Of a DNA stretch of 41,753 nt, positions 20,369 through 23,985 are shown piece by piece. The translations under genes and the position numbers were made by a program. Numbering within the stretch: position 1 is the stretch's first letter; each line of letters opens with the position of its first letter. The DNA comes from an uncultured Solirubrobacteraceae bacterium (lineage in GTDB: Bacteria; Actinomycetota; Thermoleophilia; Solirubrobacterales; Solirubrobacteraceae). Where the stretch lies: contig CADCVQ010000176.1 of assembly GCA_902806175.1 (NCBI GenBank), forward strand, positions 1-41,753, read 5' to 3'. The notes beneath the pieces are model-generated. The model did not search any database, was not told where the DNA came from, and saw only the letters and a program-made list of their open reading frames with translations.

Positions 20369-21052
20369 CTAGGCGCGGAGAACGTAGCCTGCGCCGCGGA
20401 TCGTATGGAGGAGACGCGGCTCATCGCCGGCTTCCAGCTTCCTTCTCAGGTTGGATACGAACACCTCGATCGTGTTCGTCGTCGCGAAGGGATCGTAACC
20501 CCATACCTCTTCCAGTAGTCGCTGCCGGGGCACGACGATACGCTCGTTGCGCATCAGGTACTCCAGTAGCTCGAACTCGCGCTGCGTGAGCTCGATGTCG
20601 CGCTCCAGGCGACGGACCTCGTGCGTGTCGGGGTTGAGCTGCAGGTCGCCGACGACGAGCGAGGCGCTGCCGCGCGGCGGCCGCCGGCGCAGCAGCGCAC
20701 GCAGGCGCGCCAGCAGCTCCTGGCGCTCGAACGGCTTGACGAGGTAGTCGTCGGCGCCCGCGTCGAGGCCTTGGACGCGCGCGTCGACGGCATCGCGCGC
20801 GGTGAGCATGAGGATCGGGACGTCGCCGCCGTCGCTGCGCAGCGTGCGCGCGACGTCGATGCCGTCGATCTTGGGCAGGCCGAGGTCGAGAATCACGAGG
20901 TCGGGGCTGAACTCGCGCGCGTCGGCGAGCGCGGTCTCACCGTCATAGCTCGCGCGCGCCTCATAGCCCTCCATCCGCAGCGACCGCAGCAGAACCTGCG
21001 CGATCTCCTGGTCATCCTCGACGACGAGGACGCGTGGTTGGCGCTCGGACAT
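20369..21052 (-). CDS. OmpR/PhoB-type response regulator
   Basis: A 227-aa regulator: receiver domain with acidic pocket VVEDD (10-14), phospho-acceptor Asp56 (LVILDLGLP), Thr84 region (LMLTARD) and Lys106 (LVKPFE). The C-terminal winged helix contains LTQREFELLEYLMRN, RLLEEVWGYDPFATTNTIEVFVSNLRRKLE and the final wing TIRGAGYVL. The start codon has TACCCT nine bases upstream on the minus strand and no obvious Shine-Dalgarno. It is co-transcribed with the kinase (gap of four bases) and divergent from ftsK across the long hairpin. Confidence 0.96.
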   Translation of the reverse strand: MSERQPRVLVVEDDQEIAQVLLRSLRMEGYEARASYDGETALADAREFSPDLVILDLGLPKIDGIDVARTLRSDGGDVPILMLTARDAVDARVQGLDAGADDYLVKPFERQELLARLRALLRRRPPRGSASLVVGDLQLNPDTHEVRRLERDIELTQREFELLEYLMRNERIVVPRQRLLEEVWGYDPFATTNTIEVFVSNLRRKLEAGDEPRLLHTIRGAGYVLRA

Positions 21053-21067: not shown

Positions 21068-21089
21068 GGGCCGCGGCTCAACCCACGGT

Positions 21090-21256
21090 TAAGGGGCTAT
21101 CTCGGTAGAGATCGTGCGCTGACGCGTTCGAGAACCGAGCGGGGCGGTACGGACACCGATCTTTCGTACTGGTGGTACGACGGATCGGTGGCCGTGCCGT
21201 ATCCGCGACGGTCATCGGGCGCGTCGGCGTGCGAGATCTACCGGGATAGCCCCTAA
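21090..21256 (+). ncRNA. 167-nt near-perfect hairpin, candidate structured RNA or palindromic MITE
   Basis: The left arm 21090-21169 pairs with the right arm 21175-21256 around a 5-nt loop (21170-21174). By hand alignment, of 80 left-arm positions about 62 form Watson-Crick pairs and 10 form G-U pairs on the plus strand; two single-base bulges lie in the right arm (near 21201 and 21207). The outer 18 bp (GGGGCTATC... with ...GATAGCCCC) and the innermost CGTAC/GTACG are the strongest parts. Non-Watson-Crick pairs are almost all G-U on the plus strand and only one is A-C, which is expected if the plus-strand RNA is the selected molecule. TAA flanks the core on both sides (21090-21092 and 21254-21256), as after transposition. 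No protein-coding sense. Confidence 0.6.
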
Positions 21257-21268
21257 GGGCGGCTCGAC

Positions 21269-21355
21269 GTGCACGAGCTCCTGTCGGCGCCGCGGCGGCG
21301 GGCACGCCTGCGCCGCGCCCGCAAGCAGGACCACCCGCGGTCGCCGTCGAAGTGA
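21269..21355 (+). CDS. possible 28-aa leader ORF coupled to ftsK
   Basis: A GTG at 21269 opens a 28-codon frame (VHELLSAPRRRARLRRARK...), very basic, whose TGA overlaps the ftsK GTG as GTGA (21352-21355). It starts 13 bases after the long hairpin. No good Shine-Dalgarno or -10 box precedes it, so it could be chance; the overlap with ftsK is the only support. Confidence 0.3.
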   Translation: MHELLSAPRRRARLRRARKQDHPRSPSK

Positions 21356-23985
21356 ACCGCGGCACAACCATGGCCGCAGCCCGAAAGCCCGCACTCCGCC
21401 GCACGCCGGCCAAGAGCAAGCCGCGCGCCCGCGCGCGGCGCTCGTCGCTGGGCGCCCTCGGCCTGCCGGCGATCGAGCAGCGCCACATCGACCTCATCGG
21501 CCTCGGGCTCGTCGCGCTCGGCGTCTTTCTCGCCTTCCCGCTGTACCTCGATTGGGACGGCGGCGCGGCCGGCCACGCCGCGACCGACGGCCTGGCGTAC
21601 ATCCTGGGACAGGTCTCCTATGCGGTGCCCGTGGCGATCGTCGCCGCCGGCGCGATCCTCGTCCTGCGTCCCGTGCTGCCCGCGGTGCGACCCTTTCGCT
21701 CGGGCGCGCTGTGCCTCTTCGCCGCGCTGGCGCTCATGCTCGCCGCCGGGACGTTCGGGATCGGCCCGCGCGGCATGCGCGACGGTTACTGGGACGCATC
21801 GTTCTTCGAGCCACGCGGGGGCATCGTCGGCGACGCGCTGCTGTACTGCGTCGCCACGGCGGTGTCGACGATCGGCGCGCACATCCTCGCCGTCTTCCTG
21901 TTCGTCGCGGGCACCCTGCTGCTGACCGGCGCCTCCGTCGCCGGCGTCCTGCGCGCGACGGGCTCCGGCCTGGCCGACACGACGCGCGCGATCAGCCGCA
22001 CCGTACCCGCGCGTGCGCGACGGACGGCGCCGATCGCGGCAGATCGGCCCGCGCACCTCCCCGAGCCCGAGCCCTACCACCCGCCCGAGCCCGCCGACAG
22101 CGAGGTCGTCGTGCGCGCGACGCACGTCGAGGCGCCCGCGCCCGCGGCTCCCGCGGTGACGTCCGGCCGCGACGGCTTCTGGTCGGGCGCGGCGCGCTTT
22201 CCCGACATCTACGGCGAGCCGTCGGCGCAGGACGAGCCCGAGGACGCGGAGTCGCTCGGGCGCCAACCGGCCGAGTCCGCGCCCGACGAGCAGCCGCTCG
22301 CCTACGAACCCGACCCCGAGCCCGACGACGAGCCCGACGACGAGGACGAGGACGGCGATCCCGAGGCCACAGCCGTCCTGCCCGCCGCGCGCCCGGCGCC
22401 GTCACCCGAGGACCTCACGCCGCAGGGGCGCCTGCGCGGATCGGTCACCGACGATCCCGACTTCGAGTGGATCCTGCCCGACCCGGCCGTGCTCAAGCGC
22501 TCCTCCGCCGAGCAGTCGCGGCCCGACACCGCCGGACAGGAACGCACCGCCAAGCGCCTGATCGAGGGCCTGGGCCACTTCGGCGTCGAGGCGAAGATCG
22601 TCGGCACCGTCGCCGGGCCGCACATCACGCGCTTTGAGCTGCGCCTAGCACCCGGCATCAAGATGAGCAAGGTCGCCCAGCTCAAGGACGACCTCGCCTA
22701 CGCGCTCGCCGCGACCGACATCCGCATCCTCGCGCCGATCCCCGGCAAGACCGCCGTCGGCGTCGAGGTTCCCAACGCGCGCCGCCGCATCGTCCAGCTC
22801 GGCGACGTCAACCAGGACGCGCCGCCCGGCTGGTCGCCGCTGACGATCTGGCTCGGCAAGGACGTCGCCGGCAAGGCGATCGGCGCCGACCTCGCGAAGA
22901 TGCCACACCTGCTCGTCGCCGGCACGACCGGCGCGGGCAAGTCGGCCTGCATCAACGCGATGCTGTCCAGCGTCCTGCTGCGCGCGACGCCGCACGACCT
23001 GCGCCTGGTGCTGATCGACCCCAAGCAGGTCGAGCTCAACCACTACGAGTCGATCCCGCACCTGCTCACGCCGGTCATCACGAGCCCGCGGATGGCCGCC
23101 AACGCGCTGCAGAACCTCGTCCGCGAGATGGAGCAGCGCTACTCGATCATGTCGCTGGCCAAGACGCGCTCGCTCGTCGAGCTCAACCGCTTCCGTGCCA
23201 GGCGCGGCGACCCGGAGTTGCCGTACATCCTGTGCGTCATCGACGAGCTCGCGGACCTCATGATGGTCGCGCCGGCCGACGTGGAGGATTCGATCATCCG
23301 CCTCGCGCAGAAGGCGCGCGCGGTCGGCATCCACCTCGTGCTCGCGACGCAGTCGCCGCGCGTCGACGTCATCACCGGGATGATCAAGGCCAACGTCCCC
23401 TCGCGGATCGCGTTCAGCGTCTCCTCGCAGACCGACTCGCGCGTGATCCTGGACTGCAACGGCGCCGAGTCGCTGCTGGGACAGGGCGACATGCTCTTCT
23501 CGCCGGTGGGTTCGTCGAAGCTGCAGCGCATCCAGGGCGCCTACATCGACGAGCCGCAGATCGAGGCGCTGACGACGTTCTGGCGTCGTCAGGGCGAGCC
23601 GGAGATGCGCGAGGACCTGCTCGACGAGGTCGAGAACGACGACGAGATCGCCGCGGGCGCCGCCGACGACGGCTTCAGCCCCGACGAGGACCCGTTGCTG
23701 GAGGACGCGATCCGGCTCTGCGTCGAGATGGGGACGGCGTCGACGTCGATGCTGCAGCGCCGCCTGCGCCTGGGCTACACCCGCGCCGGCCGGCTGATCG
23801 ACATGCTCGAGCGGCGCAACGTCATCAGCGGCTACGAGGGCTCCAAGCCGCGCCAGGTGCTCGTCGGCGCGGGCGACGTGGATCGCTTCCTCGCCAACCT
23901 GCGCGAGCGCGGCGGCGCCCCGGTCGACGCACCGGTGGTCGAGCGCCCGCCGGAGCCCACCGAGCCCGCCGCGGGCCACGAGTAG
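21352..23985 (+). CDS. ftsK: DNA translocase FtsK/SpoIIIE
   Basis: Septum-anchored ATPase that pumps chromosomal DNA during division. The 877-aa protein has an Arg/Lys-rich N-terminus and about four TM segments (roughly 45-200). An acidic Pro/Glu/Asp linker follows (about 225-360), then the motor domain with Walker A GTTGAGKS (about 524-531), IDPKQVELNHYE, Walker B YILCVIDELADLMM and LATQSPRVDVITG. The gamma winged helix ends the protein (DAIRLCVEMGTASTSMLQRRLRLGYTRAGRLIDMLE). The start could be the GTG at 21352 or the in-frame ATG at 21370 (MAAARKPAL); neither has a strong Shine-Dalgarno. The stop TAG is part of the TAGCCT box of the next unit. Confidence 0.97.
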   Translation: MNRGTTMAAARKPALRRTPAKSKPRARARRSSLGALGLPAIEQRHIDLIGLGLVALGVFLAFPLYLDWDGGAAGHAATDGLAYILGQVSYAVPVAIVAAGAILVLRPVLPAVRPFRSGALCLFAALALMLAAGTFGIGPRGMRDGYWDASFFEPRGGIVGDALLYCVATAVSTIGAHILAVFLFVAGTLLLTGASVAGVLRATGSGLADTTRAISRTVPARARRTAPIAADRPAHLPEPEPYHPPEPADSEVVVRATHVEAPAPAAPAVTSGRDGFWSGAARFPDIYGEPSAQDEPEDAESLGRQPAESAPDEQPLAYEPDPEPDDEPDDEDEDGDPEATAVLPAARPAPSPEDLTPQGRLRGSVTDDPDFEWILPDPAVLKRSSAEQSRPDTAGQERTAKRLIEGLGHFGVEAKIVGTVAGPHITRFELRLAPGIKMSKVAQLKDDLAYALAATDIRILAPIPGKTAVGVEVPNARRRIVQLGDVNQDAPPGWSPLTIWLGKDVAGKAIGADLAKMPHLLVAGTTGAGKSACINAMLSSVLLRATPHDLRLVLIDPKQVELNHYESIPHLLTPVITSPRMAANALQNLVREMEQRYSIMSLAKTRSLVELNRFRARRGDPELPYILCVIDELADLMMVAPADVEDSIIRLAQKARAVGIHLVLATQSPRVDVITGMIKANVPSRIAFSVSSQTDSRVILDCNGAESLLGQGDMLFSPVGSSKLQRIQGAYIDEPQIEALTTFWRRQGEPEMREDLLDEVENDDEIAAGAADDGFSPDEDPLLEDAIRLCVEMGTASTSMLQRRLRLGYTRAGRLIDMLERRNVISGYEGSKPRQVLVGAGDVDRFLANLRERGGAPVDAPVVERPPEPTEPAAGHE

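What the first reader, a model, noticed from the sequence alone, without database searches (positions are those of the whole stretch)
21090..21256. 167-nt near-perfect hairpin upstream of ftsK with the substitution pattern of a structured RNA
Two arms of about 80 nt pair around a 5-nt loop, with about 72 of 80 left-arm positions paired. By hand alignment, imperfect pairs on the plus strand include about ten G-U pairs and only one A-C pair. A DNA palindrome drifting neutrally should give both kinds equally, because a G-U on one strand is an A-C on the other. The bias argues for selection on a plus-strand RNA reading toward ftsK. I know no described family of this shape at this place. It could be an ftsK leader element, a processed small RNA, or a substrate for a double-strand-specific nuclease.
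Basis: partly seen in the sequence, partly recalled or inferred. Interest (0 to 1): 0.85.

Follow-up and report, generated by a model that had tools for sequence, protein, structure and literature searches.

The report
Mobile hairpin element inserted beside ftsK
The hairpin is one copy of an apparently undescribed family of about 160-base jumping DNA hairpins scattered through actinobacterial genomes; it landed beside ftsK by chance, but the family as a whole shows that the folded shape of one strand has been selected as the element spread, which hints at an unusual way of copying itself.

Summary
The hairpin is real: 161 bp (21093-21253), 71 predicted pairs on the + strand, shuffle z -12.7. 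The given coordinates are the element plus a 3-bp direct repeat TAA on each side. It is a mobile palindrome, not an ftsK leader. Close relatives lack it at a preserved single GGTTAA site. Copies of the same kind lie dispersed in other genomes (at least 40 in one), with target duplications TNA or CTAG (46 of 114 copies; 9.9 expected by permutation). A covariance model finds 150-166-nt relatives in 35 of 399 genomes of the class and in other families of the phylum; there is no Rfam match. Stem pairing, terminal repeats included, covaries strongly although the terminal sequences differ between families.

In 11 multi-copy families, mismatches fixed in the consensus are 77 G-U to 9 A-C; changes private to one copy are 27 to 35 (Fisher p = 1.6e-9). 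So the + strand fold was selected in the propagating lineage, while resident copies drift. I read this as a MITE-like element whose spread needs a folded + strand (RNA or single-stranded DNA). The moving enzyme and the RNA-or-DNA question are open.

The parts
21090..21092 (.). left target-site duplication TAA
   Evidence: matches 21254-21256; single GGTTAA site in relatives L010, L066, L011
21093..21253 (+). 161-bp palindromic mobile element; + is the strand whose fold is conserved in the family
21130..21148 (+). left part of the conserved core (GAGAACCGAGCGGGGCGGT)
   Evidence: family alignments
21199..21219 (+). right part of the conserved core (GTATCCGCGACGGTCATCGGG)
   Evidence: family alignments
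21254..21256 (.). right target-site duplication TAA
20369..21052 (-). neighbour: response-regulator gene (Response_reg, Trans_reg_C), context only
   Evidence: Pfam
21352..23985 (+). neighbour: ftsK, context only
   Evidence: Pfam FtsK domains

Best explanation
The hairpin is a non-autonomous mobile palindrome (MITE-like) of a large family in Actinomycetota that appears undescribed. It inserted into the divergent promoter region between a response-regulator gene and ftsK, duplicating TAA. It encodes no protein. Shown: mobility, target duplication, family-wide conservation of the paired structure with extensive covariation, and strand-specific selection on the fold that acts on the propagating sequence and not on resident copies. 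Inferred: propagation requires the + strand to fold as a single strand, either as an RNA made from active copies or as a single-stranded DNA intermediate or substrate, while an enzyme supplied in trans that cuts with a 3-4 bp stagger at TNA or CTAG does the insertion. Resident copies, this one included, are mostly neutral passengers at intergenic or stop-codon sites.
For: Dispersed copies: own genome C95 (shortened, before smpB) and C18, G001, at least 40 in G038. Target duplications with matched variable base (TAA, TTA, TCA, TGA) or CTAG: 46 of 114 against a permuted mean of 9.9, maximum 16. Empty site in L010, L066, L011. Class and phylum distribution: 35 of 399 and 17 of 396 genomes. On 49 sequences not used to build the model, 88.5% of cells pair against 61.5% in shuffles, covariation score 0.686 against 0.198, 54 of 58 pairs change on both sides, including all 13 of the terminal stem. 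Consensus mismatches GU 77:AC 9, GA 75:CT 3, GG 27:CC 2; private changes GU 27:AC 35, GA 8:CT 9, GG 10:CC 11. Outer 34 nt only: 35:1 against 15:15, p = 7e-6. For sequences not found through the covariance model: 30:2 against 7:14, p = 4e-6.
Against: No transposase or other partner with matching ends was found: IS1380, DDE_Tnp_4 and DUF4096 searches gave none with these ends, and a terminal-repeat search in 10 genomes gave only complete or truncated palindromes. No transcription data. The + strand is not preferentially co-oriented with neighbouring genes (tandem: 11 sense, 20 antisense), so a read-through RNA is not obviously the selected form. No replication-strand bias by GC skew. Most families were found with a model that itself scores G-U above A-C, and families share ancestry, so consensus counts are not fully independent.
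Confidence: 0.75

Rival explanations
1. Ordinary MITE moved as double-stranded DNA by a cut-and-paste transposase; the strand asymmetry is a by-product of a mutational bias during copying or of inherited ancestral mismatches, and no folded single strand takes part in transposition.
For: Target duplications, terminal repeats and intergenic sites are all MITE-like. Many MITEs lack a visible partner. Families share ancestry, so part of the bias is inherited.
Against: Bias is as strong in the outer 34 nt, where families differ in sequence (35:1), and covers G-U, G-A and G-G together, which C-to-T deamination alone would not give. Private changes show no mutational bias of this kind (27:35). Sequence of the ends is less conserved than the core, unlike a normal transposase-binding end.
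Confidence: 0.3
2. Host-selected regulatory RNA (leader, processing site or terminator) at this and other loci, the family being a co-opted regulator.
For: Stable + strand fold; about a third of classified copies touch a stop codon, and some lie in promoter regions. Other MITE transcripts are RNase III substrates (PMC10969869).
Against: Private changes are symmetric, so resident copies are not under fold selection. No conserved position: empty site before ftsK in relatives, member in 1 of 80 other ftsK loci. No orientation bias to genes. No terminator-like T run in the window.
Confidence: 0.1
3. Element moved by a single-strand-specific (HUH/Y1) transposase, as in REPIN/RAYT or IS200/IS605.
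For: Would explain strand-specific hairpin selection directly.
Against: These enzymes leave no target duplication (own knowledge), whereas the variable base of TNA agrees left and right copy by copy within one subfamily. No lagging-strand bias. RAYT genes were not searched for.
Confidence: 0.1

Closest known systems
ERIC / RU-1 (127 bp, enterobacteria) and similar orphan MITE-like palindromes (YPAL/RU-2, RU-3)
   Same: Short intergenic repeat with palindromic folding, no established partner transposase; small duplications on insertion for several of them (PMC2229807, PMC10969869)
   Different: Different host range; target TNA or CTAG; much wider taxonomic spread; conserved core with variable but paired ends; strand-specific fold selection shown here
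Correia / NEMIS elements (Neisseria)
   Same: MITE with terminal repeats whose transcripts fold into long stems (RNase III substrates; PMC10969869, PMC2229807)
   Different: Confined to Neisseria; RNase III processing is untested here; sequences not compared directly
RUP, BOX, SPRITE (pneumococcus)
   Same: BOX and RUP are tightly folded with their ends paired (PMC3049150)
   Different: RUP has a likely partner (IS630-Spn1, PMC2229807); none found here
REPIN / RAYT system
   Same: Palindromic mobile unit predicted to fold as ssDNA or mRNA; the unit itself is argued to be under selection (PMC3116915)
   Different: A 160-bp continuous rod rather than paired REPs; true 3-4 bp target duplications; RAYT linkage not tested
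IS5-family (IS1031/IS427 groups) derived MITEs
   Same: 3-bp TNA duplications (from memory of ISfinder, not checked in a source)
   Different: No IS5-type transposase with these ends found

Membership tests
MITE (non-autonomous transposable element) | short, non-coding, with terminal inverted repeats | tested here: met
   161 bp, complementary ends, no start-to-stop gene within it
MITE (non-autonomous transposable element) | target-site duplication and empty sites | tested here: met
MITE (non-autonomous transposable element) | multiple dispersed copies | tested here: met
MITE (non-autonomous transposable element) | autonomous partner with the same ends | tested here: inconclusive
   none found; not all transposase families were searched
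IS5-derived MITE | IS5-type transposase gene with matching ends | tested here: not met
   PF13359 and PF13340 gave no partner in the own genome, its genus or G038
IS1380-derived MITE | IS1380 transposase bounded by these ends | tested here: not met
   the single case (L168) is an IS1380 remnant between two half-elements of different subfamilies with unmatched flanks; its near relative L182 lacks the ends
Described structured RNA family (Rfam 15) | match to a covariance model | tested here: not met
   no match over the element in the window nor in 13 loci
REPIN/RAYT | REP pairs linked to a RAYT gene | not tested
   no RAYT search made; the 3-bp duplications argue against it
ftsK leader RNA | conserved position upstream of ftsK orthologues | tested here: not met
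   1 of 80 other loci, different subfamily; empty site in nearest relatives
ERIC / Correia / RUP | sequence relationship | not tested
   not aligned; compared through papers only

The most novel reading that the evidence does not exclude
A phylum-wide mobile element that spreads through a folded single-strand stage (an RNA, SINE-like or acting as a structured cofactor, or a structure-recognised single-stranded DNA) yet inserts with short target duplications: a transposition mode not described for bacterial palindromic repeats.
Probability: 0.25. Interest if true: 0.93.

Novelty: new variant of a known kind. Interest (0 to 1): 0.68.

Why it matters
Orphan palindromic repeats are common in bacteria, and how they move is mostly unknown. 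Here a fixed-against-private comparison separates selection on the mobile unit from selection on the resident copy, and points to strand-specific folding as a condition of spread. That makes the mechanism directly testable, and the same test can be applied to ERIC, Correia and similar elements. The family also deserves annotation: copies sit in promoter regions and on stop codons and can be mistaken for leader RNAs or terminators, as happened here.

Tried and rejected
ftsK leader: rejected by empty sites and by absence from 79 of 80 other ftsK loci. IS1380 as parent: attractive because a transposase remnant in G038 C134 lies between two element ends 1.3 kb apart, but the ends belong to different subfamilies, the flanks do not match and a near-identical IS1380 copy lacks the ends. 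IS5-type parents: DDE_Tnp_4 and DUF4096 not found with such ends. Terminal-repeat search for a longer element in 10 genomes: hits were complete elements or, in G098, unpaired ends that on inspection look like truncated or half palindromes. Rfam, plasmids, phages and viral contigs: no match. Gene-orientation and replication-strand bias: none found. The ungapped palindrome scan was too strict and missed even the window hairpin; its negative result was not used.

Full report
WHAT IS THERE. The finding's coordinates, 21090-21256, are exactly a 161-bp palindrome (21093-21253) plus a TAA on either side. The + strand folds with 71 pairs, 11 of them G-U, at -132.9 kcal/mol; the - strand has 61 pairs and one G-U. 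No dinucleotide shuffle folds as well. A symmetric arm alignment counts 9 G-U and 1 A-C. The hairpin lies between a response-regulator gene transcribed leftwards (20369-21052) and ftsK transcribed rightwards (from 21352).

IT IS MOBILE. In three of the nearest ftsK relatives (L010, L066, L011) the intergenic region aligns up to a conserved GGTTAA and continues without the hairpin; the window has GGTTAA, the element, then a second TAA. The own genome carries a shortened copy before smpB (C95) and a distant member on C18. The sister species G001 has a near full-length copy elsewhere and a decayed copy before smpB. G038, of another family of the order, has at least 40 matches to one copy. Their flanks are direct repeats TNA whose variable base agrees copy by copy (TAA, TTA, TCA, TGA). 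Over 114 copies, 46 show a TNA or CTAG-type duplication, against a mean of 9.9 and a maximum of 16 with permuted right flanks.

IT IS A LARGE FAMILY. A covariance model from 15 copies of three genomes finds nearly uniform members, mostly 150-166 nt, in 35 of 399 genomes of the class. A second model built from 49 members not used in the first finds members in 17 of 396 genomes of the phylum, including two families outside the class. Only the best 7 candidates per genome were scored, so these are lower bounds, and the model E-values are rough. Sequence conservation sits in the inner part: CC-RAGC on the left, GCATCCGCG-MM-G on the right and, in many families, GGACGCAGG with CCGAGGACG around the tip. 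The ends differ widely between families, yet they pair: helix 1 is 95% paired and all 13 of its pairs change on both sides. Over the whole structure 88.5% of cells pair (shuffles 61.5%) and the covariation score is 0.686 (shuffles 0.198; slid structures at most 0.093). These alignments were fitted to the model's structure, which inflates such counts; I judge the margin too large for that alone. No Rfam family matches, and nothing was found in plasmids, phages or viral contigs.

THE G-U ARGUMENT, TESTED. Over 39 families the counts are 231 to 70, with G-A 277 to C-T 22 and G-G 87 to C-C 15. To separate selection on the spreading lineage from selection on resident copies I compared, in 11 families with three or more copies, mismatches fixed in the consensus with changes found in one copy only. 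Fixed: GU 77, AC 9; GA 75, CT 3; GG 27, CC 2. Private: GU 27, AC 35; GA 8, CT 9; GG 10, CC 11. Fisher p is 1.6e-9 for GU/AC and 3.5e-6 for GA/CT; in the outer 34 nt alone it is 35:1 against 15:15, p = 7e-6. The sequences in this subset share some inherited mismatches, so these p-values are optimistic. The tolerated mismatches are the thermodynamically stable ones (my own knowledge of mismatch stability, not looked up). So the + strand fold has been selected, as RNA or as single-stranded DNA, but in the propagating sequence; resident copies drift neutrally.

HOW IT MOST LIKELY WORKS. Shown: insertion with a 3-4 bp duplication, dispersal, conserved structure, strand-specific selection at the level of spread. 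Inferred: an enzyme acting in trans inserts the element, and a folded + strand is needed at some stage. I could not identify the enzyme. Read-through RNA from host genes is not obviously the form, since the + strand is sense to tandem neighbours in 11 and antisense in 20 loci (gene calls by a home-made codon model), and there is no GC-skew bias. Twenty-seven of 80 classified copies touch a stop codon of a neighbouring gene, as expected for TNA and CTAG targets that spare the gene.

KNOWN OR NEW. It works like, and meets most tests of, a MITE; the partner test is inconclusive. It is closest in kind to orphan palindromes such as ERIC (PMC2229807, PMC10969869). What differs is the breadth, the conserved core with variable but paired ends, and the strand-specific fold selection. 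I found no description of it in the paper searches made, which cover open-licence papers only and matched words, not sequences.

Noticed in passing
L004:5557-5615 (G000 C95) and L008:1501-1569 (G001 C13): A decayed member sits before smpB in both species, apparently one old orthologous insertion; the own-genome copy has lost its middle, as palindromes tend to do.
   Followed up: partly
L015:1736-1893: An independent insertion of a different subfamily lies in the same regulator-ftsK intergenic region of another Solirubrobacterales genome, so this region has been hit at least twice.
   Followed up: partly
window 21074-21092: A stretch around GGCTCAACCCACGGTTAA is conserved between relatives just before the insertion point and may be a promoter or operator of the regulator gene.
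   Followed up: no
L314-L333 (G098): About 20 one-ended or internally deleted derivatives share the GACCTATCCCGGTAGGG end; L315 is a half-element flanked by TTAG on both sides, as if an inner site had served as an end.
   Followed up: partly
L168 (G038 C134:18177-19521): An IS1380 transposase remnant lies between two half-elements of different subfamilies.
   Followed up: yes
L169, L170, L171, L178 (G038): A 113-bp version with an internally shortened palindrome is itself present in several copies, with TAA on both sides in at least two of them.
   Followed up: no
L291, L292, L297, L299 against L224, L252: In family f13 the inner motif changes from GGACGC with GAGGACG to GGCCGC with GAGAACG on both arms together, which may be covariation of a non-Watson-Crick pair.
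   Followed up: no
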